Assembly (NCBI RefSeq): GCF_000621165.1
Contig: NZ_JHZA01000017.1
Coordinates: forward strand, 62,001 to 126,000
From: Enterovibrio calviensis DSM 14347
Lineage (GTDB): Bacteria > Pseudomonadota > Gammaproteobacteria > Enterobacterales > Vibrionaceae
Length of the DNA stretch: 64,000 bases
Direction of reading: 5' to 3'
Below are positions 36,231 to 50,325 of the stretch, in pieces. A program made the position numbers and the translations under genes. Under the pieces are notes generated by a model. The model was not told the origin of the DNA. It made no database searches and worked only from the letters and a program-made list of their open reading frames with translations. Within the stretch, counting starts at the first letter, position 1, and each line of letters begins with the position of its first letter.

Positions 36231-36233
36231 GGG

Positions 36234-37853
36234 TTATTCCCCGTCCTTGAGGATGGATTGTTGATACATTTCGAGTAGTAAGCGTTTATCGATTTTCCCT
36301 CGTGGAGTCAGCGGCAATTTTTCGAATACCATCACGCCGACTGGCACGCAGTAATAGGGAAGGTGCGCGGCAACATGGTCAGTGGCAGTTTTCTCGTCAA
36401 CCGAAGAAGGAGTGACGAAGGAGACAAGGTGATCGTCATCCAATTTCAATGTCACAGCTAATTGGCAGTCAGGAAGGCTCTCTAGCATGGTGGAGATGGA
36501 ATCAAGCTCAACGCGGAACCCTTTCACTTTGACTTGGTCATCTGTACGACCATAGTGCTCGAGCTCTCCGTTTGCTGACCAACGCCCGAGATCTCGTGTT
36601 CTAAACATCACGTTTCCATCGCCTAAAAATGGGTCGGGGCGATAGCGTGCCTGACTGAGTTCTGCATTGGCTAAGTACCCTTTGGTGACACAAACGCCGC
36701 CTGCCCACATTTCGCCGACCTCACCAATGGAGCAAGGTTTGAGTTCATCATCCAAGATATATACGGTGTTGTTTGGGGTAGGTTTGCCAATGGAAAGCTT
36801 GTCTCCAGGGCGATATAACTTAGCTGTGTTGATGATGGTGGTTTCTGTTGGGCCACAGCAATTATAGAAATCACAAAATCCACCCCATGTTTCAGCGAGT
36901 GGCTCTGGGCATGGCTCGCCGGCTACCGCTACCACACTTACGTCTTGGCACTTAATGGGGTCAATTTGACCAAGAATGGACGGTGTGGCGACGATTACAT
37001 CGACGTTTGTCGCGGTGTTTTCAATCACGCTGTCTCGAATCAGCAATGTCGCGCCGTGGCAAAGCGCGACAAAAATTTCCCACGCTGCCATATCAAACGC
37101 GATGCTAAGAATTTGTGCGACCCGCATACCCGGTTTAACGCCAAGGTTGCCCGGTGAAGTCATCACAATATTGCAGACATTTTGGTGCGTTACCTGAACG
37201 CCATTTGGGTTTCCAGTTGTCCCCGACGTAAAGAGAATAAAGCAGTTATCGTTGGGTTTTGACGTACGCTTTTTGGTGACATTGAGATCATTAAACTCGC
37301 GGGTTTTCATTAAGCTATCGAGGGCGATAACGCTGCTGTTCTCGAAGTCGGGCAAGTACTTTTCATGACGACTGAGGGTTAGTACGATTTTAATACGAGC
37401 CACATTCGCAATGTGCTGCAACTGTGAATTAGGGGCAACACCAGCATGTTGAGGGACATAGTTTGCTCCTAGTTTTAAACAAGCAATAATCCCGACGAGC
37501 ATTGGCAAAGAGCGTGTGAGAAACAGACCAACAGAATCGCCGCGTTTGATTCCCTGATGATGAAGTAGGGTAGCGAGCTTTTCAGCATAGCTATCCAGTT
37601 CTTGATAGGACATGGATCGATTGCCATGAATGGCAGCAATAGCGTATGGCGTTTTAGTTGCATGATGTTCGAATGCACTGTTCAGGGTATTAAATGTGGG
37701 CTTTTCATTGGAACCACGACCAAATTCGATAAATTTTCGGACATCGCCCGCGTTGAGACTTTCCAGCGGTGAGATGTGGAATACGTTATCGTCGTTTGAG
37801 AGAAGTGAGGGTGGTGTTGGTGGAAATGCCATCGAGTTAAGTGTCACGGTCAT
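36234..37853 (-). CDS. Stand-alone NRPS-type adenylation enzyme
   Basis: 539 residues, an AMP-binding enzyme with amino-acid adenylation core motifs in order: LKLGANYVPQ (A2), LFTSGTTGNPNG (A3, about 208-218), FDMAAWEIF (A4, Asp254 and Trp258), NCCGPTETT (A5), RTRDLGRW (A7), GRTDDQVKVKGFRVELDSI (A8) and PRGKIDK (A10 lysine). The Asp in A4 usually holds the alpha-amino group of an amino acid. No carrier, condensation or thioesterase domain is attached, and no carrier protein gene is nearby. It is the first gene of an operon with a membrane flavoprotein and a crotonase. The product is unknown. Confidence 0.85.
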   Translation of the reverse strand: MTVTLNSMAFPPTPPSLLSNDDNVFHISPLESLNAGDVRKFIEFGRGSNEKPTFNTLNSAFEHHATKTPYAIAAIHGNRSMSYQELDSYAEKLATLLHHQGIKRGDSVGLFLTRSLPMLVGIIACLKLGANYVPQHAGVAPNSQLQHIANVARIKIVLTLSRHEKYLPDFENSSVIALDSLMKTREFNDLNVTKKRTSKPNDNCFILFTSGTTGNPNGVQVTHQNVCNIVMTSPGNLGVKPGMRVAQILSIAFDMAAWEIFVALCHGATLLIRDSVIENTATNVDVIVATPSILGQIDPIKCQDVSVVAVAGEPCPEPLAETWGGFCDFYNCCGPTETTIINTAKLYRPGDKLSIGKPTPNNTVYILDDELKPCSIGEVGEMWAGGVCVTKGYLANAELSQARYRPDPFLGDGNVMFRTRDLGRWSANGELEHYGRTDDQVKVKGFRVELDSISTMLESLPDCQLAVTLKLDDDHLVSFVTPSSVDEKTATDHVAAHLPYYCVPVGVMVFEKLPLTPRGKIDKRLLLEMYQQSILKDGE

Positions 37854-38217: not shown

Positions 38218-38709
38218 TTAGTTCTGCAGTGCACGCATTACTGCATTGACCACATCTTCAGCGTTATGAGTAATATCGATGAAAATGGCTTCATCAAGTG
38301 TGGGTTCGACGAGGGTTTCGAATTGGCTTTTCAGCATGTCTTCCCCATTAAAATAGTGGTCGGTACGCTGTTTGTGACGTGACCAAATCGTATCGAAATC
38401 GCCGCGCAAAAAAACAATGATCATGTCTTCATTATTCTGGCGTAACGTCTCTCGGTACTCATTTTTTAGCGCAGAACAAGCGATGACGACCTCATCGTTG
38501 TTAACAAACAGCCTGTTAAGCGTGCGAAGCCAGCCCTGACGATCTGCATCACTCAAAGGGATCCCTTGGCGCATTTTCTTCACGTTTTTTTCTGGATGGT
38601 AATCATCGCCGTCATAAAAAGGGACTGCGAGCCTTTGAGCAATGAGGCTACCAATCAAGCTCTTTCCAGAGCCTGATACGCCCATCAATAGAATCTTCTT
38701 CGGTTTCAT
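38218..38709 (-). CDS. gntK: Gluconokinase
   Basis: About 163 residues from ATG 38709; a longer start adds 14 residues with no ribosome-binding site. Motifs are the P-loop LLMGVSGSGKSLIGSLIA, FYDGDDYHPEKNVKKMRQGI and PLSDADRQGWLRTL, all typical of GntK. It phosphorylates gluconate to 6-phosphogluconate for the Entner-Doudoroff or pentose phosphate route. It sits last in an operon with the TRAP genes, which points to gluconate as the imported substrate. Confidence 0.93.
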   Translation of the reverse strand: MKPKKILLMGVSGSGKSLIGSLIAQRLAVPFYDGDDYHPEKNVKKMRQGIPLSDADRQGWLRTLNRLFVNNDEVVIACSALKNEYRETLRQNNEDMIIVFLRGDFDTIWSRHKQRTDHYFNGEDMLKSQFETLVEPTLDEAIFIDITHNAEDVVNAVMRALQN

Positions 38710-38785
38710 CTGAATCGATATCCTCTGGCCTTGAGCCACCTGGCGAGACATGAAAAAGCGACGGCTTTACTAGAATTCACTCTCA

Positions 38786-40102
38786 TTATTTCCACCACAT
38801 AGCGAGTTGAGGGAATGCGATGGTCAGGGTCAGCACGCAGATTTGCAGCGCGATGAACGGCAACAAAGAGCTGAAAATCTCTCCCAGACTAATGTCTTTT
38901 GGGGCAACGGATTTGAGGTAAAACGCGGCTGGGCCAAATGGCGGTGATAAGAAAGACACTTGCATGTTGAGGCAGAACACGACGCCAAACCAAATCGGGT
39001 CATACCCGAGTTCGGTGATCATCGGAACAAAGATTGGCATGGTGAGCAGCGCCACTCCCACCCAATCCAGAAACATGCCGAGCACTAGCAAGATAAGCAT
39101 CATGATCAGGAGGGTGGACAGTGCCCCACCGCCACTGAGTGAGAAGATAACGTCGCCGACAAAATCAATCCCACCCATCAAGTTGTAAATGCCCACGAGG
39201 GCGCTGGCCCCAATGCCTATCCAAATGATCATGCCGCATGTGCGCATCGTGGCGATAGCACTGTCTCTCATCATGGGGAAGTTTAACTCTCCACGTATCC
39301 ATGCACTCGCCATGATGCCAATGACGCCAAGCGCCGAGGCTTCAGTGACCGAAGCAATGCCGGAATAGATACTGCCCAGCACCACTGCGACAGAAAGCAA
39401 TGGGAAAAACAGCGCCTTCATGTAGCTGATTTCTTCCTCTTCTTCTGCATCAAACTCCGCGGTGTCTGGGGCGAGGGAAGGGTCTAGATAACAACGGATC
39501 AGCACATAGGCGACGTAGAAACTTGCCAATAGCAAGGCTGGGACAAATGAGGCTTTAAACAAATCCCCAATCGAGACACTTGCAGTCATGCCGTAGATGA
39601 TCAACACGATACTAGGCGGCAGCATGGTGCCCAATGCACCGCCCGCGCAGGTTGTGCCGATCGCGAGCTTTCGGTTATACCCCAAGCGCAGCATCTGCGG
39701 CAAAGCGAGAATACCAAGCAACACGGTTTCGCCGCCAATGACGCCACTCATGGAAGCGAGAACAACAGCTACTAGTAGGGTTTGCACAGCGACCCCGCCA
39801 CGCACGCGGCGTCCAATTACCCGCATGGCGTTGAACAGATCTTTTGCGATGCCTGAACGGTCGAGAATCGAAGCCATGAGCACGAACATCGGCACAGCAA
39901 GAAACACATAGCCGGAAACAAAACTGTAGGTGCGGCTGGCAATGAGTGGCAATGCATCTGGGCCAAACCAACCTAAGGTAAAGAACAGCGCGACGAACCC
40001 AGTTACGAAGGCAAGCTGCATCCCCGTAAGCAACAACGCGATCATCATTCCTAGCATGAGAATGCTGCCCCAACCGAGGCCGATTGAGGACAATTCAAAC
40101 AT
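38786..40102 (-). CDS. dctM: TRAP transporter large permease (DctM)
   Basis: 438 residues, about 12-13 helices, DctM family. Typical blocks are GMLLPPSIVLIIYG-like TMLPPSIVLIIYGMTA, FLDWVGVALLTMPIFVPMIT and LNMQVSFLSPPFGPAAFYLK. It is the sodium-driven channel subunit working with DctQ and the DctP binding protein. It overlaps dctQ by 8 bp. An acidic cytoplasmic loop (EFDAEEEEEISYMK) lies mid-protein. Confidence 0.94.
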   Translation of the reverse strand: MFELSSIGLGWGSILMLGMMIALLLTGMQLAFVTGFVALFFTLGWFGPDALPLIASRTYSFVSGYVFLAVPMFVLMASILDRSGIAKDLFNAMRVIGRRVRGGVAVQTLLVAVVLASMSGVIGGETVLLGILALPQMLRLGYNRKLAIGTTCAGGALGTMLPPSIVLIIYGMTASVSIGDLFKASFVPALLLASFYVAYVLIRCYLDPSLAPDTAEFDAEEEEEISYMKALFFPLLSVAVVLGSIYSGIASVTEASALGVIGIMASAWIRGELNFPMMRDSAIATMRTCGMIIWIGIGASALVGIYNLMGGIDFVGDVIFSLSGGGALSTLLIMMLILLVLGMFLDWVGVALLTMPIFVPMITELGYDPIWFGVVFCLNMQVSFLSPPFGPAAFYLKSVAPKDISLGEIFSSLLPFIALQICVLTLTIAFPQLAMWWK

Positions 40103-40652
40103 CTTTGGATTTCCTAAAACTGCTGACTTCTTGAATGAGGTGTAACGTAAATTGAATCACCAACACGCATAACACAGCGAAGAGTAGACCTTTAAGCAAG
40201 GCTGGATAAGGGGCATTAAGCACAGAACCTGACGTTTCAAGGCGCAGGTCACCCCAAGGCGCAAACCAAGATTCTTCAGCGGTGAAGTAGGCCGAATAAG
40301 CCAGCATGCCAGCAAACGCGAGACCAACGATGTGATGGAAGATATTGAGGTAGCGTCGCTTTTTCGCAGATACCGCATCATAAATCAGTACCACGCGAAC
40401 ATGTCTGTTGGTCGCGAACGCATAGATGCCACCAAAAATGAAAAGTGAGCCTCCAATAAACGAAGCGGTCTCATGTACCCAAGTTGTCGGTGCATTAAAG
40501 GCATAGCGCATGACAACTTCGTAGAAAGAGATCAATGCAGTGACAATAAAGAGAAGACTGAGCAGATTGCCGATACGAACAATAGCCCGATCTAGCGCAT
40601 TACGGGGCGCGTTTTCATCTGCTTGAGCTGACGCGGGTGGTTTATCATCCAT
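40095..40652 (-). CDS. dctQ: TRAP transporter small permease (DctQ)
   Basis: About 185 residues from ATG 40652, with GGGAAG upstream. Four transmembrane helices carry the DctQ pattern (IVTALISFYEVVMRYAFNAP, then WVHETASFIGGSLFIFGGIY and ATNRHVRVVLIYD). It is the small membrane subunit that pairs with DctM. A hairpin separates it from dctP upstream. Confidence 0.92.
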   Translation of the reverse strand: MDDKPPASAQADENAPRNALDRAIVRIGNLLSLLFIVTALISFYEVVMRYAFNAPTTWVHETASFIGGSLFIFGGIYAFATNRHVRVVLIYDAVSAKKRRYLNIFHHIVGLAFAGMLAYSAYFTAEESWFAPWGDLRLETSGSVLNAPYPALLKGLLFAVLCVLVIQFTLHLIQEVSSFRKSKDV

Positions 40653-40671
40653 AACAATTCTTCCCAAAGAT

Positions 40672-40693
40672 GAAGAGGGCAAACGCCCTCTTC
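40672..40693 (-). terminator. Intercistronic hairpin between dctP and dctQ
   Basis: GAAGAGGGC aaac GCCCTCTTC, a 9-bp perfect stem about 36 bp after the dctP stop, with a weak T tail (ATCTTTGGG) on the minus strand. It could limit read-through or protect the dctP mRNA end. Confidence 0.6.
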
Positions 40694-40701
40694 GGGTCAA
40701 C

Positions 40702-40739
40702 CATGTGTACTTTCAACAAACATGTGTGCTTACAACAAA
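40702..40739. repeat. 19-bp direct repeat at the dctP stop codon
   Basis: catgtgtactttcaacaaa is followed at once by catgtgtgcttacaacaaa (17 of 19 identical). The second copy contains the dctP stop codon. Confidence 0.7.
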
Positions 40740-41746
40740 CCGTTGGAGGTTAGGAACGTCGTGACAGAGTCATAGACTTTTTGCGCGTTAGGAGAACGCT
40801 CTGCAAACACCTTCCATTGTGTCTTCGCGATTTCACGGAATTTCTTACGTTCATCGTCTGACCAATTGTGGATGGTGATGTTTGGATTGTTCTGCGCTTC
40901 GGTCAATGCCGCTTGGTCAGCAATTTTTAGTTGGGTGGTAATGTCGTAAGAAAAGTCCCGCACCGACGTTTGCAGAATTTGCTGAAGATCGGCGGGCATG
41001 GAATCCCATTTCTTCTGCGAGATGGAGACGTCAATAAGCGGCAGAGAGTGGAAGCCGGGTTGAACAGGATGCGTTGCAATGTCATTCATGCCCGCTTTTT
41101 GGTTGGTGGAGAACACCGTGTAATCAGCCGCGTCGATCACGCCTTTGCTCAAGCCTGTGAACACTTCGGAACCGGGGAGGTTAACGGGTGTTGCGCCTGC
41201 TGCGGCAAACACTTGCTGTACCAAGCCTTCAGGCGCTCTGAGTTTCAGGCCCTTAAGATCATCAACACCATCTAATGGTTTTTTCGAAATGAAGGATTCT
41301 ACGCCCGTGGTCGATGCGCCAATGAATTTCACACCATAAGGCGCGTAAAGCTCAGTCATTAACTCGTTGCCGCCACCGTAGTTCATGTATTGCAGCAATT
41401 GAGTGGTGTCTGACCACGCGCCAACCATGTTGCCAATTAAACCAAATGCAGGGTCTTTGCCGGAGAAATAACCTGTCGCGGTGATATGGCCGTCGAGGAT
41501 GCCTAATTTGATCGAACCTAATGTTTCAGTATGCTTAACAATAGAGCCGACAGGCAGCAAGTCGATATCGATTCTGCCATTCGACATTTGTTCGACACGC
41601 TCTGCCCAATCTTGCTGGATTTTGAAGTTAAGGTCGCCTGACGGATCAGAGGACTGAATTTTTAAATTAAAATCAGCGGCTAAGGTTGATGCAGAAAAGA
41701 GGCCAGTGACAGTAGCAGCTAACAAAGCTTTAGATAGCATGTTCAT
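40730..41746 (-). CDS. dctP: TRAP transporter substrate-binding protein (DctP), probably for gluconate
   Basis: 338 residues with a signal peptide (about 1-23). The DctP fold has the carboxylate-binding Arg170 in DLKGLKLRAPEG, so the ligand is an organic or sugar acid. AAGGAT lies 8 bp before the ATG. It is the first gene of dctP-dctQ-dctM-gntK. Two GntR-type palindromes about 80-115 bp upstream and gluconokinase downstream argue for gluconate or a close aldonate. Confidence 0.93.
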   Translation of the reverse strand: MNMLSKALLAATVTGLFSASTLAADFNLKIQSSDPSGDLNFKIQQDWAERVEQMSNGRIDIDLLPVGSIVKHTETLGSIKLGILDGHITATGYFSGKDPAFGLIGNMVGAWSDTTQLLQYMNYGGGNELMTELYAPYGVKFIGASTTGVESFISKKPLDGVDDLKGLKLRAPEGLVQQVFAAAGATPVNLPGSEVFTGLSKGVIDAADYTVFSTNQKAGMNDIATHPVQPGFHSLPLIDVSISQKKWDSMPADLQQILQTSVRDFSYDITTQLKIADQAALTEAQNNPNITIHNWSDDERKKFREIAKTQWKVFAERSPNAQKVYDSVTTFLTSNGLL

Positions 41747-41826
41747 TTCAGAGGTATCCTTATGGGTTCCACGTTGGAAAATAACAGCGTTTCCACTGAA
41801 GGTTTCTTGTTCTGTTTGTTACGAAT

Positions 41827-41861
41827 GTTACCGGTAACTTTGCAATAGTGTTACCGGTAAC
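41827..41861. promoter_or_regulatory. Tandem GntR-type operators
   Basis: Two perfect 12-bp palindromes GTTACCGGTAAC at 41827-41838 and 41850-41861, 23 bp centre to centre, upstream of dctP. They match the E. coli GntR/IdnR consensus (ATGTTACCsGTAACAT) as I recall it. No gntR gene is in the window. Confidence 0.85.
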
Positions 41862-42043
41862 TTAATTCCCTTCCGAGATCTAGATCCCAAATTCGGCCTT
41901 TGGTTAATTTTATGTTAACTAGCTGCGTGTGTGGCGCGCGTAAGAGGTGCGAATTATTGGCGGGGTAAATTGTTTAAAATTAGCGGCTTGTGGTGCTTTT
42001 GTTGTTGGTAGCTGAGTGGAAAAAACACAAAACAAGAAGAAAG

Positions 42044-42077
42044 AAAACGCCCAAAACCGGTTGAATGGTTTTGGGCG
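42044..42077 (-). terminator. Terminator of the dddTBC operon
   Basis: CGCCCAAAACC ggttgaat GGTTTTGGGCG is a perfect 11-bp stem. On the minus strand it is followed by TTTTCTTTCTT, 38 bp after the dddC stop. Confidence 0.88.
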
Positions 42078-42115
42078 CTGTTTATTTCTACTTGCTGATT
42101 AAGCAGGTAGTGCGG

Positions 42116-43609
42116 TTAGAGTGTTGGCATGGAGAACACCGCACCTTCGCGAACATTGGCTGATGGCCAACGCTGTGTGATCGTTTTTCTGCGGGTGTAG
42201 AACTTCACCGAGTCCGGACCATAGGCATGCAAATCACCAAACAGGGATTGCTTCCAACCCCCAAAGCTGTGGTAGGCAACCGGCACAGGTAGTGGCACAT
42301 TGATCCCAACCATGCCGACTTTGATGTTGTCTGAGAAGTATCTCGCGGCTTCCCCGTCACGGGTGAAGATGCAAGTGCCGTTGCCGTACTCATGGTTGTC
42401 GATGAGCGTCATGGCTTCTTGCATTGAATCGACGCGAACAATTTGCATAACAGGGCCAAAGATCTCTTCTTGGTAGCTCGTCATGTTCGGCATCACGTTG
42501 TCAATCAATGTTGGGCCAACAAAGTATCCGCTTTCATAGCCTTCTACTGCGGGATTTCTGCCATCAACCACAAGGGTCGCTCCGTCACTTTCGGCAGAAG
42601 AAATATAGCCGTTCACTTTCTCTTTGTGCTCGCGACTGATAACAGGACCGAAGTCGTTGTCGTTATCATAAAATGCGCCCACACGAAGTTCGTCCAGTTT
42701 TGGTTTGAGCATCGCTGCCAAGTTATCTGCCGTTTCTTGGCCGACAACAACAGCCACTGACAGCGCCATGCAACGTTCGCCGCTAGAGCCATATGCAGCG
42801 CCAACCAATTGATTCGCAGCATTTTCGAGATCGCAATCTGGCATGACGATCGCGTGGTTTTTCGCCCCGCCCAACGCTTGGCAGCGCTTACCGTTTTGTG
42901 TGGCTTGCTCATAGATATATTTGGCAATCGGCGTACTACCAACAAAGCTCACCGCCTCAATGCCTTTGTGCGTTAGCAGGCCATCTACCACAGATTTACC
43001 GCCTTGAAGAACCTGCATCACACCATCAGGAAGGCCAGCTTCTTTGAGCAACTTCGCAATGAACAACGAAGTGCTTGGATCTTTTTCTGATGGCTTGAGG
43101 ATAAAGCAGTTACCGCATACCAAGGCCATTGGGAACATCCACAGTGGCACCATCGCTGGGAAGTTGAACGGTGTGATACCCGCTACAACACCCAGAGGTT
43201 GATGCTCTGACCATGAGTCAATGGAAGGGCCGACATTCTTGCTGTATTCACCTTTTAGCAACTCTGCTGCTGCACAGGCATACTCGACGTTTTCGATACC
43301 GCGTTGCAGTTCGCCCGCTGCGTCGTGCGCAATCTTGCCGTGTTCTTCGCCAATGAGTCGGCAGATTTCATCTTTATTTTCTTCAAGCAACTGCTTGTAT
43401 TTAAACATGATGCGCGCACGTTTAATGGCGGGCTGGTCGCGCCATGCTTGAAACGCGGCGTTAGCGACATCAACCGCTTCGTTAACAAGAGCGTCGGGTG
43501 CGAGCATTAGCTCGCGGATCGCTTCCCCAGTTGCTGGGTTATAAACCGGTTGCGTGCCTGCGTTGTCTTCGCGCAACTCGCCGTTAATGAGGTGTCCAAT
43601 ATTTTCCAT
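42116..43609 (-). CDS. dddC: Malonate-semialdehyde dehydrogenase (CoA-acylating), DddC
   Basis: 497 residues, the methylmalonate-semialdehyde dehydrogenase (MmsA/IolA) branch of the aldehyde dehydrogenase family. It has Asn149 in GITPFNFPAMVP, Lys172 in LKPSEKDP, FVGSTPIAK (222-230), LGGAKNH, and catalytic Cys280 in YGSSGERCMAL. In the DMSP pathway DddC converts malonate semialdehyde with CoA and NAD to acetyl-CoA and CO2. It is the last gene of dddT-dddB-dddC, 16 bp after dddB, with AAGGAAG before the ATG. Without the context it could equally be called mmsA or iolA. Confidence 0.92.
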   Translation of the reverse strand: MENIGHLINGELREDNAGTQPVYNPATGEAIRELMLAPDALVNEAVDVANAAFQAWRDQPAIKRARIMFKYKQLLEENKDEICRLIGEEHGKIAHDAAGELQRGIENVEYACAAAELLKGEYSKNVGPSIDSWSEHQPLGVVAGITPFNFPAMVPLWMFPMALVCGNCFILKPSEKDPSTSLFIAKLLKEAGLPDGVMQVLQGGKSVVDGLLTHKGIEAVSFVGSTPIAKYIYEQATQNGKRCQALGGAKNHAIVMPDCDLENAANQLVGAAYGSSGERCMALSVAVVVGQETADNLAAMLKPKLDELRVGAFYDNDNDFGPVISREHKEKVNGYISSAESDGATLVVDGRNPAVEGYESGYFVGPTLIDNVMPNMTSYQEEIFGPVMQIVRVDSMQEAMTLIDNHEYGNGTCIFTRDGEAARYFSDNIKVGMVGINVPLPVPVAYHSFGGWKQSLFGDLHAYGPDSVKFYTRRKTITQRWPSANVREGAVFSMPTL

Positions 43610-43625
43610 GGGTGGCTTCCTTTTC

Positions 43626-44786
43626 TTAAGACCAAAGGCCTCGATACAATGATTTCATTTCTTCTGGGTCGGGAACTCTTGGGTTGTTCGCGGGTGATCC
43701 TGATGCCAGTGCTTGCTCGATCATGGTGTCGACCACTGATTCAAAGTTGTCACGCGTCACGCCAAACTCTTCCAATGTTGGGACTTTGAGCTCTTGATTG
43801 ATCGCAGCGAGTTCTTCCACCAAACGCGTATTAGCAACATCAATTGGATCTGCCGCACTGGCCAGCCCCATCGCGACGGCACACTGTGCATAGCGCTCCG
43901 GTGCTTCTTGAATGGAGAAGGCGGTAATGCTTGGCAAAAGCATGGCGTTTGATAGACCGTGAGGAACGTGGAAGAACGCACCAATCGGGCGGCTCATTCC
44001 GTGAACTAAGGCAACGGAGGCATTGGAAAACGCAATCCCTGCTAATGTTGCGCCTCGCATCATGGCTTCGCGGGCATTGGTATCGCTGCCGTTGTGGTAA
44101 ACCGTGCGAAGGTTAGGTGCAATCAATCGCATCGCTTCGAGCGCATTGAAGTCACTAAACGCACTGGCTTTGCGGCTGACGTAGGCTTCAATGGCGTGGG
44201 TTAATGCGTCGATGCCGGTATCTGCCGTAATGCGTGCGGGCAATGACATGGTCAATTCATAATCCACGATCGCCGCAGTAGGGGAGAAGCCTAATCCAAC
44301 ACACAGCATTTTCTCGTCGGTGGCGTCATCAGTGATCACGGTAAACTTGGTCACTTCAGAGCCGGTCCCCGCCGTGGTCGGAATGGCAATAATCGGTAAA
44401 CCTTGCTCATTCACAATGCGCGGGACTTTGTAGTCACGCATTTTTCCGCCGAAGTGAGCAAGAATCGCAATGGCCTTGGCACTGTCTATGGCGCTGCCGC
44501 CGCCGAGCGCAATTAAACAATCGAACCCGCCGTCTTTAGCGATTTGTACTGCTTCATCGACCGAACTCGCCGTCGGCTCTGGGATGGTGTCTGCATACAC
44601 GCGAGATTCAATATCTGCTTGGGTGAGCAATTGTTGAACCTTATCGGCATAACCAAACTGCACCATGGTTTTATCGGTGATTAACAGCACGCGTGATGCG
44701 TTTAAGTTCTTGACCAAATCAGGCGTACGAGCGATCGCGCCGCCGCCAATTTCCATCATTCTTGGTAAGGTGACTGATGCGCTCAT
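43626..44786 (-). CDS. dddB: Iron-containing alcohol dehydrogenase DddB
   Basis: 386 residues, Fe-ADH family. The NAD-binding GGGSAIDSAKAIAI and PTTAGTGSEVTKFTV are followed by the metal-site segment DTGIDALTHAIEAYVS and the His-rich GMSRPIGAFFHVPHGLSNAM. In DMSP users DddB oxidises 3-hydroxypropionate to malonate semialdehyde, the step between DddD and DddC. It overlaps the dddT stop by 4 bp, so the two are co-translated. Confidence 0.92.
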   Translation of the reverse strand: MSASVTLPRMMEIGGGAIARTPDLVKNLNASRVLLITDKTMVQFGYADKVQQLLTQADIESRVYADTIPEPTASSVDEAVQIAKDGGFDCLIALGGGSAIDSAKAIAILAHFGGKMRDYKVPRIVNEQGLPIIAIPTTAGTGSEVTKFTVITDDATDEKMLCVGLGFSPTAAIVDYELTMSLPARITADTGIDALTHAIEAYVSRKASAFSDFNALEAMRLIAPNLRTVYHNGSDTNAREAMMRGATLAGIAFSNASVALVHGMSRPIGAFFHVPHGLSNAMLLPSITAFSIQEAPERYAQCAVAMGLASAADPIDVANTRLVEELAAINQELKVPTLEEFGVTRDNFESVVDTMIEQALASGSPANNPRVPDPEEMKSLYRGLWS

Positions 44787-46351
44787 TTTGTCGCTCCTAT
44801 TACGTCTGGTTTTCCTGGAAGGGGTTCGCTGCGTAGCGCTCGGTAAAGTCCAATAACGGTCGCAATCACAACAAAGGAATAGGGCAAGGCGGCCACTATG
44901 GATGCGGTTTGAAGTGCGCCCAGTCCACCCGCAAGCAGTAGAACGGCAGCCACAAAACCAATCGCCATGCCCCAGAAGATACGGTAGCGGGTAGGTGGAT
45001 TATCACTGCCCATTGAAACGAGTGTACAAATAACCAAGGTCGCTGAGTCCGCAGATGTGACGAAGTAAGTCACCAACATAATGGTACAGATAGATGCCCC
45101 GATCGTGGTGAGGACAGTGCCGACGTCCATAAATTCTATGGTCTTAAATAATGCCAACGTGAGGTCACTGTTCACGGCGTCGACCACGCCTCCTTGTCCG
45201 AACAATTCAATGAACATGGCCGTGTTGCCGAAGATGGTGATCCAAAATGTAGCCAATAGTGTTGGAGCAAGTAATACGCCGAGAATGAATTCACGGATGG
45301 TGCGTCCACGGGAAATACGCGCAATGAAGATGCCACAAAACGGTGCCCATGCAATCCACCATCCCCAATAGAAAATGGTCCAAGAGCCCTGCCAAGTGTG
45401 CTCAGGATCAGGGTCAACCCAGAGGCCGAGTGACGTGAAGTTCAGCAAGTAGTCACCGAGATTGGTAAAGAACGAACCGATGACATAAGCCGTTGGGCCA
45501 AGGATGATAAAGAAAGCGAGCATCACGACGGTGAGTTGCATGTTGAGTTCGCTGAGAATACGAATGCCTTTGTTGACGCCGGTAATCACAGAGAAGGTGG
45601 CGATCATGGAGATCACAACAATGAGCACGACCTGAACCGTGGTGCTGATTTCAATGCCAAATAAATAGTTGAGACCCGCATTCATTTGTTGCGCGCCGAG
45701 GCCGAGTGACGTGGCAATACCAAATACCGTCCCAAAGACAGCAAGCAGATCGGCGGCATGCCCAATCGGTCCGTAGATTTTGTCGCCAAGTAAAGGGTAA
45801 AGACCGGAGCGAATAGAAAGAGGAAGACCTTTGCGATATGAGAAGTAGGCGAGTGATAGTCCACAAAGTGCAAATAAGCCCCAACCATGGAGACCCCAGT
45901 GGAAGATGCTTAGTCGCATCGCTATCTGAGCTGCATCAATGGATGATGTGCCTTCTGTAATGAAAGGGTTGCTCTGAAGGTGGTACATAGGCTCGGCAAT
46001 ACTCCAGAACAGAATGCCTATACCAATACCTGCGCCGAATAGCATGGAGAACCATGAGAAAAAGCCAAACTCCGGTTTTTCATCATCTTTCCCCAACCGG
46101 ATGCTTCCATAGCGACTGAAAACGAGATAGATAGATATAAATAAGAATATGCTCATTAATCCGACGTAGTACCAAGCCAAATTGGTTGCGATATAATTCT
46201 TTGACGCAGAATAAACGCCACTTGCGTGTTCTGGAGCTAACGTGGTGTAAATAACAAACAATATAATAAGAAAGGAAGACCCTGTGGCCATTACAGGGTT
46301 TACCCCCGCAAATATTCCTTTTTTATTATTCCTACTTATCTCATTGCCCAT
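44783..46351 (-). CDS. dddT: BCCT-family DMSP/betaine transporter DddT
   Basis: 522 residues, 12 helices, betaine-choline-carnitine transporter family. Signature regions are FGAGIGIGILFWSIAEPMYH, HWGLHGWGLFALCGLSLAYF and, in the substrate helix, FYWGWWIAWAPFCGIFIARI, which carries the Trp residues of the cation box. It lacks the long regulatory C-terminus of BetP, so it is likely a constitutive-activity importer under transcriptional control. It is the first gene of dddTBC and divergent from dddR. DMSP as the cargo follows from the cluster. Confidence 0.92.
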   Translation of the reverse strand: MGNEISRNNKKGIFAGVNPVMATGSSFLIILFVIYTTLAPEHASGVYSASKNYIATNLAWYYVGLMSIFLFISIYLVFSRYGSIRLGKDDEKPEFGFFSWFSMLFGAGIGIGILFWSIAEPMYHLQSNPFITEGTSSIDAAQIAMRLSIFHWGLHGWGLFALCGLSLAYFSYRKGLPLSIRSGLYPLLGDKIYGPIGHAADLLAVFGTVFGIATSLGLGAQQMNAGLNYLFGIEISTTVQVVLIVVISMIATFSVITGVNKGIRILSELNMQLTVVMLAFFIILGPTAYVIGSFFTNLGDYLLNFTSLGLWVDPDPEHTWQGSWTIFYWGWWIAWAPFCGIFIARISRGRTIREFILGVLLAPTLLATFWITIFGNTAMFIELFGQGGVVDAVNSDLTLALFKTIEFMDVGTVLTTIGASICTIMLVTYFVTSADSATLVICTLVSMGSDNPPTRYRIFWGMAIGFVAAVLLLAGGLGALQTASIVAALPYSFVVIATVIGLYRALRSEPLPGKPDVIGATK

Positions 46352-46390
46352 TGCAACACTCCTTGTTAAAGCATGTTCTTATGATTTTTA

Positions 46391-46404
46391 GTGACGATTG
46401 TCAC
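46391..46404. promoter_or_regulatory. Candidate regulator site between dddT and dddR
   Basis: GTGAC gatt GTCAC is a perfect 5-bp dyad, 40 bp upstream of dddT in the dddT-dddR divergent region. A LysR-type protein is one candidate binder. Confidence 0.3.
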
Positions 46405-46628
46405 GTTATGTTGTTATTGTCTGGTTTCCTTAACGTCTCTAATCTTTCCAATTTTCCATTGTTCATATTTAAAGCCAGCTAAACATCTACGTTCACGCTC
46501 ATTTAGACAATCAAAAAAATTACAGCCATTGGCATAAGAAAATTTATACATCTAAATAGACGCTTAATTTATTGCGCAAATTACGTTTTATTGAGTTACA
46601 TTGAAAAAGTACTTACAAGGACGTAAAC

Positions 46629-47555
46629 ATGAAAAAGAGACTTCCCCCATTGAATTGGCTTCGCTCTTTTGAGGCCGCAGCAAGGCACTTAAGTTTTACC
46701 CATGCATCGCAAGAGCTGCACATCACTCAGGCGGCGATGAGCCAGCAAATCAAAGGCCTAGAGAGCCAGTTAGGTACGGCGCTTTTTGTGCGTCTTCCGC
46801 GTGGCCTTCAATTAACCGAGGCGGGGGCGGCCTATATGCCTGTAGTGCATGATGCCATTGAGAAACTTTCTGAGGTTACTGAAGAACTCTTTGGTCAGGG
46901 TAGGTCTAAGCTTCTGAATATTAGAGTTAATCTGGTGTTTTTTATTCATTGGCTCGCCCCGAGATTAGAAGCCTTTACCGAGAAACATCCTGAAGTGAAC
47001 CTCAAAGTGACCAGTAATATCTGGGTGAACAATCGCCATGGTTCGAACGATTGCGATTTGGAAGTCACTCACGGAAATGGGCGCTGGCCGCACTTGACTG
47101 CACATCGATTAACGTGGGACACCTTAACCCCTGTGTGCAGTAAGCAATACGCAGCACGGCTTCCCGAAAACATTACTCCTGAGGCGCTGTTAAAAGAGAA
47201 ATTGCTGCATGTCATTGGTTATGAGGATGGCTGGGGGCACTGGTTTACCAGTATGGGATTACCCTATGCAGAGTTTCAACAAGGCAGCCAATATGACACC
47301 TTGGTAAATGCATTAGAAGTGGCTATTAATCATGGTGGTATTGCACTTGGTCGTAGTAGTTTGGTGAAAAGATATATTAATGAGGAAAGGCTTGTTCGCT
47401 TATTTGAGACAGATGTAACGACAAAAGAAGCTTTCTATCTTGTTAGTTCAAATTCAAGGGTTTTACATCCTCACGCCAAGTTGTTTATTGATTGGATGCT
47501 AATGGAAGTCGAATTGGATTCGACGAATAATGATTACAGGGATTTATATAATTAA
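46629..47555 (+). CDS. dddR: LysR-family regulator, probable DddR
   Basis: 308 residues. The N-terminal winged helix (LNWLRSFEAAARHLSFTHAS QELHITQAAMSQQIKGLESQ) is GcvA-like, and the LysR effector domain follows. AAGGA lies 7 bp before the ATG. It is placed between the divergent dddT operon and the co-directional dddD, as in other ddd loci, where DddR activates dddD and dddTBC in response to DMSP or a breakdown product. Its role here is inferred from position. Confidence 0.85.
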   Translation: MKKRLPPLNWLRSFEAAARHLSFTHASQELHITQAAMSQQIKGLESQLGTALFVRLPRGLQLTEAGAAYMPVVHDAIEKLSEVTEELFGQGRSKLLNIRVNLVFFIHWLAPRLEAFTEKHPEVNLKVTSNIWVNNRHGSNDCDLEVTHGNGRWPHLTAHRLTWDTLTPVCSKQYAARLPENITPEALLKEKLLHVIGYEDGWGHWFTSMGLPYAEFQQGSQYDTLVNALEVAINHGGIALGRSSLVKRYINEERLVRLFETDVTTKEAFYLVSSNSRVLHPHAKLFIDWMLMEVELDSTNNDYRDLYN

Positions 47556-47640
47556 AGTTGTCTCGTATTAATTTTTTATACGCCGAGCCCTAATTTTTAT
47601 TAATAGTCGTTTATTTTTATGCAACCTATCATTGCCTGTA

Positions 47641-47676
47641 ATGAAACTCCGACTCTGTGAGTAGGAGGTTTCTCAT
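47641..47676. promoter_or_regulatory. Imperfect dyad upstream of dddD
   Basis: ATGAAACTCC and GGAGGTTTCTCAT form an imperfect inverted repeat about 40-70 bp before the dddD start. It is a candidate DddR site or mRNA leader hairpin. Confidence 0.35.
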
Positions 47677-47712
47677 TTCAGGTAAACATCTCTATGGTAG
47701 GAGCATAAATAA

Positions 47713-50232
47713 ATGAGAAATACACTGCCGCTTGCAGGAATCAACGTTGTGGACTTTGGGCAATATATCGCAGGCCCTGCTGTAGCAATGATTCTTGCCG
47801 ATTTAGGTGCCAATGTTGTGCATATCGACCCACTTGGTGGCCCTATGTGGGATGATCCCGCAAATGCGGTTCTAAACCGAAACAAACTGTGTATTGAGCT
47901 GGACTTGCAAACCAGCGAGGGGCGAGAGAAAGCCCTGTATCTCTGTGCTTCTGCAGACATCATCATCGAAAACTTCCGCCCAGGAAAACTTCAAGGACTC
48001 GGCATTGATTTCGATTCACTTCGAGAAGCCGATCCAAGGCTCATTACCTTGTCTATGCCCGGTTTTGCTTCCAATGACACCCTAAGAAGAGAATGGAAAG
48101 CCACTGAAGCGGTGATTGCCGCCAGCTCGGGTGTTTATACCGACATGGGTTTTAACCGTGTTCTGATGGGCTGTAATCCAAGCTTTTCTCCGTTAACGTT
48201 AGGGTCAGCGTATGCGACAACGCTTGCCGCCAGTGCTGCATCGCTTGCCCTGTATGCACGCGAAAAAAGCGGCCGCGGCGATCACATCGAAGTCCCTATT
48301 GCTGCCGCTCTGATGGAAGGGCTGTCATATAACTCAATCGTGATTGAAGGGATGCCAGAGCGTTACCACACCATGCGTGAAAATGAGATTGCTCATCGTC
48401 GCGAACATGGGCTGGAAATGGATGTGACCTATGAGGAATTACAAGAATTTCTTGATCCGTTTTTCCGCACCTACGAATGCAAAGATGGCCGTTTTTTCTA
48501 CGTTGTTTGTCCGTCACACCGTAATCATGCAAAACGCTGTCTGGAGCTTGCTGGGCTTTATGATGAGCTGGTTGAAGAAGGGCTTCCAGATGTGGAGAAC
48601 TTGTACTTGCCTATCGCTGAGTGGGATGGTGAGACCTCAATCGGTGTGTACCCATTACCTAAAAAATGGGCAGATATTATTGCCGCTAAAATGAAGCGCG
48701 CTTTTTTGACCAAAACCTCTGAAGAGTGGGGCGTGCTATTTGGTGAGCATGGCATTCCTGGTGCGCCTCATCGCTCTACGCAAGAATGGATGCATAATCC
48801 ACATAACGTCGAAAGCGGCCTGACTGTCACTGTGAACGATGAAAACTATGGTGAAATGAAACAACCCGGGCCGCTCGTTTGGTTTGAAGGTATGGGCGAG
48901 GAGCTGTGCGACATGTCACCTCGTCAGTACGGTGATTTTAATGATGCAAAATATCTCTTTTCTTTCCGTTCAGAACCTACGCGGAACACCGCTTCTCTCG
49001 ATGAAGAGAATGGCCAACAAGACGGTACCAATCCCCTTTGGCTAGACGGTGTGCGTGTACTCGACCTCACCAATGTCATTGCAGGGCCACATTCAACAGG
49101 GTTCTTGGCGCGCTTTGGAGCCAAAGTGACAAAACTGGATCCGACCAAATCGCTTTACGATCCGCTCATTGGTGTATTGTTTAGCTTCTTGTCTAACTGC
49201 GGAAAAGAAAGCCTATTGATGGATATGCTGACTGACCAAGGTAAAACTATTTTTGAGCAACTGGTCAAAGAGAGCGACGTGGTTGTGATCAACGCACCAG
49301 AGCGTCAAGTTGAGGCGCTAGGGCTAAGCGATGCTCGGTTAAAAGCGATTAATCCCAATGTGATATTTTGTCGCTTAGATTGCTTTGGCGGCCCTAAGCG
49401 TGGCCTAAAAACCGATTACATTGGCTATGACGATATTATCCAAGCCAATAGCGGGATCATGAGTCGTTTTGGTGGGGCGCAAACCCCAGAGGAACATGCA
49501 CATATCGGCACTCTCGATGTGAATTGCGGCTTTGCTGGTGGTTTGAGTATTGCAGTGGCTTTGTATCACCGTGAGAAAACGGGCCAAGCGTTACGTGCTA
49601 GAACATCATTGTCTTCGACCACTAACCTTGCGCAGATAAAATATAGCCATGACTACGCAGGCCGCGCGCCGTTTAACGAGCCATCAGGCCGAGAGGCACT
49701 GGGCTACAATAGCCTGTCACATATTTATCCGACATCCGACGGTTGGTTGTATCTTGATGCGTCTGAAAAAGATCTTGCGACATTTGAGCTGCTTAAGCAC
49801 TTTCAAGGAATCTCATCACGTGATGATGCAGAGCGAAAAGCGTTTATCGCTGGCGCGTTGGCAAAGCAGTCATGCGATTACTGGATGAACACCTTCTGTG
49901 AGCTGGACATTGGCGCGGCTGAAATAAAGAGCATTGAATGGCTTCGCGAAAAGTACAGCCGAAAAAGTGACGGGAAAGTGGGTAGTGACCTAGGAAGCTA
50001 CGCATTCTCTGTTTATGAGGACCACCCAAGCGGCTTAGAAACCACCACGGTCGATCATTACGCTATTCGTCCTTCTCACGCAGAGATCATCGCATTGAAA
50101 CCGACGGAAAGGTTTGGCACGTCAAGCCGCGAGGTTCTCTCTCGTTTGTCGTTAGATGATGATGCGATTCAAGCCCTTATCAATGGCGGGATTGTGAGTG
50201 AAGGGTGGTCAGAAGCCTTCTTGCCTAACTAA
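47713..50232 (+). CDS. dddD: DMSP CoA-transferase/lyase DddD
   Basis: 839 residues made of two class III CoA-transferase (CaiB/BaiF) domains, about 1-420 and 445-839, each starting with a matching block (INVVDFGQYIAGPAVAMILA; VRVLDLTNVIAGPHSTGFLA). The catalytic Asp is present only in the second domain, in HIGTLDVNCGFAGG at residue 602, the number I recall for the Marinomonas DddD nucleophile. The first domain has Ser at that place (LTLGSAYATT). DddD transfers CoA to DMSP and releases dimethyl sulfide with 3-hydroxypropionyl-CoA/3-hydroxypropionate. It is cytoplasmic, downstream of dddR on the same strand. Confidence 0.96.
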   Translation: MRNTLPLAGINVVDFGQYIAGPAVAMILADLGANVVHIDPLGGPMWDDPANAVLNRNKLCIELDLQTSEGREKALYLCASADIIIENFRPGKLQGLGIDFDSLREADPRLITLSMPGFASNDTLRREWKATEAVIAASSGVYTDMGFNRVLMGCNPSFSPLTLGSAYATTLAASAASLALYAREKSGRGDHIEVPIAAALMEGLSYNSIVIEGMPERYHTMRENEIAHRREHGLEMDVTYEELQEFLDPFFRTYECKDGRFFYVVCPSHRNHAKRCLELAGLYDELVEEGLPDVENLYLPIAEWDGETSIGVYPLPKKWADIIAAKMKRAFLTKTSEEWGVLFGEHGIPGAPHRSTQEWMHNPHNVESGLTVTVNDENYGEMKQPGPLVWFEGMGEELCDMSPRQYGDFNDAKYLFSFRSEPTRNTASLDEENGQQDGTNPLWLDGVRVLDLTNVIAGPHSTGFLARFGAKVTKLDPTKSLYDPLIGVLFSFLSNCGKESLLMDMLTDQGKTIFEQLVKESDVVVINAPERQVEALGLSDARLKAINPNVIFCRLDCFGGPKRGLKTDYIGYDDIIQANSGIMSRFGGAQTPEEHAHIGTLDVNCGFAGGLSIAVALYHREKTGQALRARTSLSSTTNLAQIKYSHDYAGRAPFNEPSGREALGYNSLSHIYPTSDGWLYLDASEKDLATFELLKHFQGISSRDDAERKAFIAGALAKQSCDYWMNTFCELDIGAAEIKSIEWLREKYSRKSDGKVGSDLGSYAFSVYEDHPSGLETTTVDHYAIRPSHAEIIALKPTERFGTSSREVLSRLSLDDDAIQALINGGIVSEGWSEAFLPN

Positions 50233-50297: not shown

Positions 50298-50325
50298 AAT
50301 GGCGCTCAATGAGCGCCATTTTTTT
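50298..50325. terminator. Bidirectional terminator between dddD and nhaC
   Basis: AATGGCGCTCA / TGAGCGCCATT hairpin followed by TTTTTT on the plus strand. It can serve both convergent genes. Confidence 0.85.

What the first reader, a model, noticed from the sequence alone, without database searches (positions are those of the whole stretch)
42116..50232. Complete DMSP catabolic cluster dddTBC-dddR-dddD in a Vibrionaceae-like genome
All five parts of the DddD pathway are present and contiguous: BCCT importer, Fe-alcohol dehydrogenase, malonate-semialdehyde dehydrogenase, LysR regulator and the 839-residue two-domain CoA-transferase. The second-domain Asp falls exactly at residue 602 of DddD, and the first domain has Ser at that place. 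The order resembles Marinomonas but with dddR and dddD co-directional. The cell is therefore predicted to release DMS from DMSP and grow on the carbon. DddD loci are sporadic and often horizontally moved, so presence beside housekeeping Vibrio-type genes is notable.
Basis: partly seen in the sequence, partly recalled or inferred. Interest (0 to 1): 0.85.

Follow-up and report, generated by a model that had tools for sequence, protein, structure and literature searches.

The report
DMSP-degrading gene cluster in Enterovibrio
This marine Enterovibrio carries a complete, ordinary-looking set of genes for eating the algal compound DMSP and releasing dimethyl sulfide; less ordinary are a matching pair of DNA switches before its genes that recurs in many DMSP clusters of this type, and the different chromosomal addresses of the set in sister species.

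Summary
Window 42116-50232 holds dddC, dddB, dddT (minus strand) and divergent dddR-dddD (plus strand), all intact. The host is an Enterovibrio (nearest DddD: Enterovibrio sp. ZSDZ42, 92%). DddD groups with true DddDs, including an enzymatically tested SAR92 one; Asp602 is present in 92 of 92 rows. DMSP import, cleavage to DMS and oxidation of the C3 product is the best reading, by homology only.

It is not new in kind: DddD in Enterovibrio was reported in 2021 (PMC7876524), and the co-directional dddR-dddD layout is shared by a 24-row DddD clade.

Two things were added. A 40-bp element, trained on 16 copies, reads into dddD in 71 of 80 named DddD loci and into dddT/dddB in 48 of 66, with 4 other hits in 1.47 Mb: a candidate DddR operator. 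The window has a strong copy before dddT and a degenerate one before dddD; in Grimontia the dddD copy is not above chance. Second, within the genus the unit occupies three different sites, each empty in some relative, while DddD groups follow neighbouring genes: it looks inherited and relocated or swapped, not freshly imported.

No binding or DMS assay exists for this strain.

The parts
42116..43609 (-). dddC: CoA-acylating malonate-semialdehyde / methylmalonate-semialdehyde dehydrogenase
   Evidence: TIGR01722 657.9 bits against cut-off 448.5; best solved relative 4zz7
43626..44786 (-). dddB: iron-type alcohol dehydrogenase, predicted 3-hydroxypropionate oxidation
   Evidence: Fe-ADH and ADH_Fe_C; His-containing motifs conserved in 65 DddB rows
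44783..46351 (-). dddT: BCCT transporter, predicted Na+-coupled DMSP importer
   Evidence: PF02028 622.5 bits; matches solved BCCT chains including DddT 21ff and BetP
46508..46547 (-). candidate DddR operator reading towards dddT (40-bp element, strong copy)
   Evidence: PWM score 47.1, best in the window (this copy is in the training set); rank 1 of the whole genome, E 3.7e-7, with a model trained on it too
46629..47555 (+). dddR: LysR-family regulator
   Evidence: HTH_1 and LysR_substrate; DddR rows of the co-directional layout form one group, SH-aLRT 95
47567..47606 (+). candidate DddR operator reading towards dddD (degenerate copy)
   Evidence: PWM score 4.2, below the threshold of 5, but 0 of 100 shuffles of the gap reach it, and it was not in that training set; rank 3 of the genome, E 0.033, with a model trained on it
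47627..47632 (+). -10-like TATCAT of a predicted dddD promoter
   Evidence: TAnnAT stands exactly 20 nt after the element in 34 of 47 dddD-side copies (window letters)
47713..50232 (+). dddD: two-domain class III CoA-transferase/DMSP lyase, 839 aa
41908..50362 (.). segment present in the window and absent from the DctP-nhaC junction of G081
   Evidence: homology to the empty site ends at 41907 and restarts at 50363
42046..42079 (-). terminator-like stem after dddC
   Evidence: consensus scan; sequence match only
50298..50320 (.). terminator-like stem between dddD and nhaC, found on both strands
   Evidence: consensus scan; sequence match only

Best explanation
The segment is a self-contained DMSP catabolic unit. 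DddT imports DMSP with Na+; DddD, with Asp602 as the CoA-carrying residue, moves CoA onto DMSP and cleaves it to DMS plus 3-hydroxypropionate (or its CoA ester); DddB oxidises 3-hydroxypropionate to malonate semialdehyde; DddC turns this into acetyl-CoA and CO2. DddR, a LysR-type regulator, most likely binds a 40-bp element in front of dddT and a second, weaker copy in front of dddD, and switches both units on when the C3 product (or DMSP) appears; dddD then has its own promoter inside the dddR-dddD gap. The unit probably entered an ancestor shared by Enterovibrio/Grimontia and a sister genus and has since been inherited, lost in some lines, and placed at different sites. Shown here: genes, residues, phylogeny, conservation of the element, filled and empty sites. 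Inferred: every biochemical step, the binding of DddR, and the effector.
For: Family models. DddD tree of 92 rows (quick, SH-aLRT): window with Enterovibrio/Grimontia and a g6 row, 100, among DddDs that include SAR92 strain H921, whose recombinant DddD makes DMS (PMC10746254 section 8). Asp602 in 92 of 92. DddD domains apart from three other class III CoA-transferases, 99 and 100. Model fold is class III CoA-transferase. Element: 33 of 33 Marinomonas-type gaps, none in training, carry a dddD-side copy that no shuffle of 50 reaches; 28 of 33 have two distinct copies. 71 of 80 loci overall, 64 of 71 loci outside training, 4 other hits in 1.47 Mb, 1 hit in 3 shuffles of all loci. A LysR protein of Halomonas D47 (AcuZ) binds 3-HP and acts on dddT and dddC promoters (PMC13104084).
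Against: No assay for this organism. BCCT substrates are hard to tell by sequence (PMC13270143 section 14). The window's dddD-side element is weak; in three of 13 held-out dddR-dddD gaps, all Grimontia-group (L030, L029, L140), the best hit is reached by 11, 6 and 22 of 100 shuffles. 18 of 66 loci lack a dddT/dddB-side copy at the threshold. The -10-like box is not at that place on the dddT side: 0 of 44 copies. Of the 71 loci with a dddD-side copy, 5 show no DddR in the fetched stretch; 6 loci have DddR without such a copy. A non-ddd place (C8) outranks the dddD copy in the genome scan. PMC13104084 names other AcuZ targets (AATTGATT, TATA-N8-GATA). AcuZ effector residues could not be mapped with confidence onto DddR.
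Confidence: 0.87

Rival explanations
1. The cluster mainly serves another sulfonium or betaine substrate, for example DMSOP, with DMSP a side substrate.
For: DddD enzymes also cleave DMSOP, and Halomonas HTNK1 grows on it through dddD (PMC10686828 passages). BCCT specificity is hard to read from sequence.
Against: The same paper says that the DddD strains had higher activity on DMSP. DddD groups with DMSP-linked homologues and the gene set is the usual one.
Confidence: 0.07
2. The 40-bp element is not a DddR operator but an AT-rich promoter part or the site of another regulator.
For: It is A/T-tract rich; 5 of 71 loci with it show no DddR in the fetched stretch and 6 loci have DddR without a dddD-side copy; no binding data; print names other motifs for AcuZ; no -10-like box at the same distance on the dddT side (0 of 44).
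Against: Dyad symmetry above letter shuffles (8.4 of 17 pairs at the best of ten centres tried, against 4.9). On the dddD side TAnnAT follows at one distance in 34 of 47. In 80 loci it is almost confined to ddd promoters. 66 of 71 loci with it have DddR.
Confidence: 0.28
3. The cluster was recently imported into this strain from a Marinomonas-like donor.
For: It is absent from some congeners and sits at a site that is empty in G081.
Against: GC and GC3 like the flanks. DddD, T, B, C and R of the Enterovibrio/Grimontia rows each form one group. Branching within the genus matches 15 neighbouring genes, although rpoB DNA places G026 differently.
Confidence: 0.05

Closest known systems
ddd cluster of Enterovibrio norvegicus (PMC7876524; here L026)
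   Same: Same five genes and same order; DddD 73%, DddT 86%, DddC 84% identical. Already noted in print as lying in a region like that of Halomonas.
   Different: Chromosomal site: next to UPF0149/dbpA there, between DctP and nhaC here.
dddTBCR / dddD of Marinomonas and SAR92
   Same: Same genes; dddTBC divergent from the dddD side; the 40-bp element before dddD, and in most of them before dddT.
   Different: There dddR lies beyond dddC and dddD is directly divergent from dddT; here dddR lies between and runs with dddD. PMC10746254 describes the arrangement as that of Marinomonas MWYL1.
dddD/dddT/acu cluster of Halomonas HTNK1 and D47 (PMC13104084)
   Same: DddD, DddT, DddC and a LysR regulator that controls transport and cleavage genes.
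   Different: There dddA in place of dddB, plus acuNK, acuR and acuI in the cluster; here one AcuI-type protein above cut-off, unlinked.
Endozoicomonas, Colwellia, Pseudovibrio and Marinobacterium ddd clusters
   Same: Same co-directional dddR-dddD order and nearest DddD relatives outside Vibrionaceae.
   Different: DddD only about 61-63% identical; Pseudovibrio is alphaproteobacterial.

Membership tests
DddD | Two fused class III CoA-transferase domains in one chain over 800 aa | tested here: met
   839 aa, two CoA_transf_3 stretches; model and PDB matches
DddD | Catalytic Asp in domain 2 (602), not in domain 1 | tested here: met
   D602 92 of 92, S165 in 91 rows; helix register; another alignment puts P/T/A/S/G there, not Asp. 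The catalytic role of Asp602 is recalled (Alcolombri 2014); no passage read here states it
DddD | Groups with ratified DddD, apart from carnitine and formyl-CoA transferases | tested here: met
   92-row tree with SAR92 H921; apart from 3 other class III proteins held here. CaiB and Frc themselves were compared by profile and fold only
DddD | DMS from DMSP with acetyl-CoA | not testable with these tools
   needs enzyme assay
DddT (BCCT) | BCCT family, clustered with dddD | tested here: met
DddT (BCCT) | DMSP uptake; type of Na1 site (BetP-like or Psychrobacter-like) | not tested
   best PDB matches are TMA and choline transporters and BetP, ahead of Psychrobacter DddT; Na1 residues were not aligned
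DddC | CoA-acylating MMSDH subfamily | tested here: met
   TIGR01722 above cut-off
DddB | Fe-containing ADH linked to dddD | tested here: met
   below the cut-off of every NCBIfam model that it matches
DddR | LysR family, orthologous to dddD-linked regulators | tested here: met
   tree; 48-60% to the best DddR of the non-Vibrionaceae named loci that have one
DddR / AcuZ | 3-HP effector residues as in AcuZ (Ser130, Tyr174, His208, Glu232) | tested here: inconclusive
   Thr128-Ser129 and Glu230 are plausible counterparts; the AcuZ sequence was not held, so numbering could not be fixed
LysR-type operator | Bound by the regulator | not testable with these tools
   only conservation, dyad and spacing

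The most novel reading that the evidence does not exclude
The 40-bp element is a general DddR operator: one copy per transcription unit, same orientation to the gene it serves, kept from Pseudovibrio to Marinomonas, Pseudomonas, SAR92 and Enterovibrio while the surrounding DNA and even the gene order changed. It makes the ddd unit a self-regulating cassette that works wherever it lands, which is why it can occupy three chromosomal sites within one genus.
Probability: 0.55. Interest if true: 0.5.

Novelty: new member of a known kind. Interest (0 to 1): 0.42.

Why it matters
DddD bacteria are key users of DMSP carbon in coastal water (PMC9327192, title, start of abstract and passages). A cis-element that marks most DddD clusters would let DMSP-responsive promoters be recognised from sequence, help tell true ddd clusters from stray CaiB genes, and turn the open question of what DddR binds and senses into a simple binding experiment. 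The three-address pattern with empty sites gives a natural series for asking how a catabolic unit is lost and regained in Vibrionaceae, and which Enterovibrio/Grimontia can release DMS.

Tried and rejected
Recent foreign import: rejected as the main account because composition and trees do not show it. rpoB protein and rpoB DNA were weak or contrary on the place of G026: rpoB DNA joins norvegicus/baiacu with the window pair (97/99), against 15 neighbouring genes (100/100). Those 15 genes all lie near sites A, B or C, so they are not independent of the region. The conflict is left open.

A fixed partnership with the neighbouring nhaC or TRAP genes: rejected, because nhaC stands without ddd in norvegicus, baiacu, G046, G051 and G067, and TRAP stands without ddd in G081.

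Pseudogene claims for dddD of the sister genus g6 (G006, G016): not made, because several neighbouring genes in those stretches are also split, as in an error-prone assembly.

First regular expression for the element was one base off and useless; corrected. My first anchor for dddD-side copies missed 8 of 19 rows; the PWM scan replaced it. A shared promoter layout on both sides was expected; the -10-like box holds on the dddD side only. Mapping AcuZ effector residues failed for want of the AcuZ sequence. DddT Na1 site not resolved. Plasmid search by DNA gave nothing. No dedicated search for insertion sequences at the junctions was made.
Full report
WHAT IS THERE. The dddT-dddR gap is 277 bp and the dddR-dddD gap 157 bp. 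Family scans: DddC passes TIGR01722 well above its cut-off; DddB is Fe-ADH, DddT is BCCT, DddR is LysR, and DddD matches CoA_transf_3 in two stretches. DddT passes the general BCCT model TIGR00842 but not the betaine equivalog; the NCBIfam models matched by DddB, DddR and DddD are below their cut-offs among those shown. Terminator-like stems stand on both sides (a consensus scan only). GC and third-position GC are within the range of the nine neighbouring genes measured.

WHOSE GENOME. The window lies in a 5.5-Mb genome, G000. Its DddD is 92% identical to Enterovibrio sp. ZSDZ42 and 70-73% to E. norvegicus, E. baiacu and the Grimontia group. In a draw of 296 genomes of its family, 13 have a DddD at E <= 1e-150: 10 of the 18 same-genus genomes listed (own included), two of genus g6 and one of genus g7.

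IS IT TRUE DddD. In a quick tree of 92 rows (SH-aLRT supports) the window lies with Enterovibrio/Grimontia and one g6 row (100), inside a 24-row set (99) with Endozoicomonas, a Salinisphaera record, Colwellia, Pseudovibrio, Cohaesibacter, Marinobacterium and Neptuniibacter. The wider tree holds SAR92 strain H921, whose recombinant DddD made DMS from DMSP with acetyl-CoA (PMC10746254 section 8). The DddD of the g7 genome stands apart on a long branch and has the Marinomonas-type arrangement, so Vibrionaceae may have received dddD twice. D602 is Asp in 92 of 92 rows; residue 165 is Ser in the 91 rows with a letter there. The AlphaFold2 model (mean pLDDT 75.7, pTM 0.83) has helices of equal length at 161-186 and 598-623, which sets Ser165 opposite Asp602, but the stretches 125-159 and 572-596 are of low confidence. 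One MAFFT alignment of the two domains (17 DddDs) put P, T, A, S or G there, not Asp. The best solved relatives of the model are class III CoA-transferases such as formyl-CoA transferase, SUGCT and CaiB. DddD domains 1 and 2 each form one group apart from three other class III proteins found in the fetched loci, one of them the window genome's own paralogue. That Asp602 carries the CoA is recalled from Alcolombri 2014; the passages I read did not state it.

HOW IT WORKS. DddT's best solved relatives are TMA, choline and BetP transporters, ahead of the Psychrobacter DddT; the DddT paper warns that BCCT substrates are hard to tell by sequence alone (PMC13270143; abstract, first part of section 6, and sections 10, 11, 14 read). 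One acryloyl-CoA reductase (AcuI/YhdH) homologue above cut-off exists elsewhere in the genome.

THE REGULATORY ELEMENT. Aligning the dddT-dddR gaps of loci with this layout showed one conserved block in otherwise poorly alignable DNA. A regular expression finds it in 16 of 17, and the later matrix finds it in the 17th, L033, too. In 11 chosen loci 52% of block columns reach 80% identity against 4% in either flank. The dddR-dddD gap holds a like block, in the same orientation relative to its gene. A weight matrix from 16 copies of this layout group was then run on 33 Marinomonas-type dddT-dddD gaps that took no part in training. All 33 have a copy reading into dddD that none of 50 shuffles reaches, and 31 of 33 a hit reading into dddT; in three of those 31 the two hits are one palindromic site read both ways, so 28 of 33 have two distinct copies. 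In 13 held-out dddR-dddD gaps, relatives of the training rows, 10 beat all 100 shuffles; the three of the Grimontia group (L030, L029, L140) do not (11, 6 and 22 of 100 shuffles reach them). On all 80 named loci (1.47 Mb, both strands, score 5 or more): dddD-side copy in 71 of 80, dddT/dddB-side copy in 48 of 66 with that arrangement, 4 other hits, and 1 hit in three shuffles of everything. Two of the 4 other hits score 42 and 33 (L045, L098) and may be real copies before genes that my search did not recognise. Of the nine loci without a dddD-side copy, L034 has only 36 bases before the gene; L097 and L100 have 469 and 736; four are Enterovibrio/Grimontia (L025, L028, L029, L030); the others are L040 and L062. 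Outside the training loci the count is 64 of 71. On the dddD side TAnnAT stands exactly 20 nt after the element in 34 of 47 copies; on the dddT side in 0 of 44, so the promoter layout is not shared. Dyad symmetry is above letter shuffles (8.4 against 4.9 of 17 pairs, at the best of ten centres tried). In the window the dddT copy (46508-46547, in training) scores 47.1; the dddD copy (47567-47606, held out) only 4.2, under the threshold, though no shuffle of 100 reaches it. In the own genome they rank 1 and 3 with a sequence model trained on both (150 of 1505 candidates scored); a partial hit on contig C8 ranks 2 and was not followed. No strong further site is indicated. At E <= 1 the seven empty-site or comparison stretches L135, L137 and L149-L153 have no hit; nor have the g7 stretch L143 and the more distant DddD loci L017, L018 and L020-L024, of which, L143 apart, only about 1.5 kb beside the gene was searched. 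A DddR orthologue lies in 66 of the 71 loci with a dddD-side copy, and 6 loci have DddR without such a copy. I therefore propose a DddR operator. Print: 'DddR, LysR, DMSP' gave 3 papers and 'dddD, promoter, operator, LysR, DMSP' gave 1. PMC13104084 (abstract, sections 4, 6, 8, 9, 12, 13 and passages) reports AcuZ targets AATTGATT and TATA-N8-GATA in Halomonas D47 and LysR-like motifs in others, not this element; its supplementary figures were not read. PMC7174347 and PMC4994080 were read in passages, PMC3017554 only as a listing. Subscription papers are not in the library, so absence from print is not established.

WHERE IT SITS. Site A, between the TRAP gene dctP and nhaC: filled in the window genome, ZSDZ42 and G026; in G081 dctP and nhaC are neighbours, and homology to the window stops at 41907 and resumes at 50363. 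G081 is a poor assembly (87% complete, rpoB in five pieces), so its lack of dddD elsewhere is less sure than the empty site. nhaC also stands without TRAP or ddd in norvegicus, baiacu, G046, G051 and G067. Site B, beside UPF0149: filled in norvegicus and baiacu, empty in ZSDZ42, which has the same right-hand genes. Site C, between an SBF-type transporter and dbpA: filled in Gr. indica, Gr. celer, G078, ZSDZ35 (left side only; its contig ends after dddD) and, without SBF, G051; empty in the window genome, G067, G081 and norvegicus. The unit is not always whole: Gr. celer and G051 lack dddT and ZSDZ35 lacks dddC there. In G067, a near relative of G051, only 56 bp separate the two genes; since its neighbours on the tree carry the unit, loss or allelic replacement is likely there. 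DddD groups match the sites: A (98), B (100) and C (100) are each one group, and 15 neighbouring genes give the same branching for window, ZSDZ42 and G026 against norvegicus and baiacu (100/100). rpoB DNA disagrees for G026 (97/99 for norvegicus/baiacu with the window pair). No repeat or insertion sequence caught the eye at the junctions, but no dedicated search was made; mechanisms such as natural transformation with flank recombination are inference.

AGAINST KNOWN WORK. PMC7876524 (passages) found DddD at about 54% identity to a Halomonas query in Photobacterium, Grimontia and Enterovibrio, and noted that the E. norvegicus DddD lies in a region like that of Halomonas. Searches for Enterovibrio, Vibrionaceae or Grimontia with DMSP or DddD listed 6, 4 and 3 papers; of these only PMC7876524 was opened. 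So the cluster is a new member of a known kind. The co-directional dddR-dddD order is shared: in the 24-row DddD clade 23 rows show dddR just upstream on the same strand, and one contig (L034) ends before it could be seen. A different co-directional arrangement occurs in some Pseudomonadaceae (L093, L094, L102, L104). T and R trees also hold the layout rows together (99, 95); B and C trees do not.

VERDICT. Observation and main interpretation stand; the cluster itself is ordinary for its kind. The element shared across DddD loci and the three sites are the parts worth following.

Noticed in passing
window 41826-41862, upstream of 38218-41746 (gntK and TRAP genes): Two TGTTACCGGTAAC palindromes (no shuffle of 100 has as many matches) before a TRAP transporter plus GntK-type gluconokinase: looks like a GntR-type gluconate system. 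G026 and G081 have a LacI-family gene beside gntK that the window lacks.
   Followed up: partly
window 38218-41746 against L137, L144, L146, L148: The TRAP-gntK block is itself absent between the AMP-binding gene and nhaC in norvegicus, baiacu and G067, and stands elsewhere in G078: a second unit that changes address.
   Followed up: partly
L028 (Grimontia celer) and L139 (G051): dddT is missing from the cluster, leaving the element next to dddB; no close DddT elsewhere in G075 (celer) or G051. Import by another BCCT would be needed.
   Followed up: partly
L029 (Enterovibrio sp. ZSDZ35), left of 4836: dddC is missing between the SBF gene and dddB; whether a copy lies elsewhere was not searched.
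   Followed up: no
L141 (G006) and L142 (G016), genus g6: dddD is split into two frames in both genomes; neighbours are split too, so assembly error is possible.
   Followed up: partly
L143 (G114, genus g7, same family): A separate, long-branch DddD with divergent dddD/dddTBC and dddR at the far end; no hit of the element model.
   Followed up: no
plasmid records: 42 plasmid records carry a DddD-like protein (E <= 1e-100), mostly Agrobacterium and Rhizobium, 25 predicted conjugative, and two Pseudomonas plasmids at about 61% identity.
   Followed up: no
genomes G002 and G021 (2.1 and 2.6 Mb, same genus): Small genomes of the same genus have neither DddD (E <= 1e-150) nor a BCCT match at E <= 1e-60; they look reduced.
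   Followed up: no
window 34893-37853: An amino-acid-adenylation-like protein (539 aa, just under the TIGR01733 cut-off) next to a 445-aa protein without NCBIfam match, together in G026, norvegicus, baiacu and G067 too.
   Followed up: no
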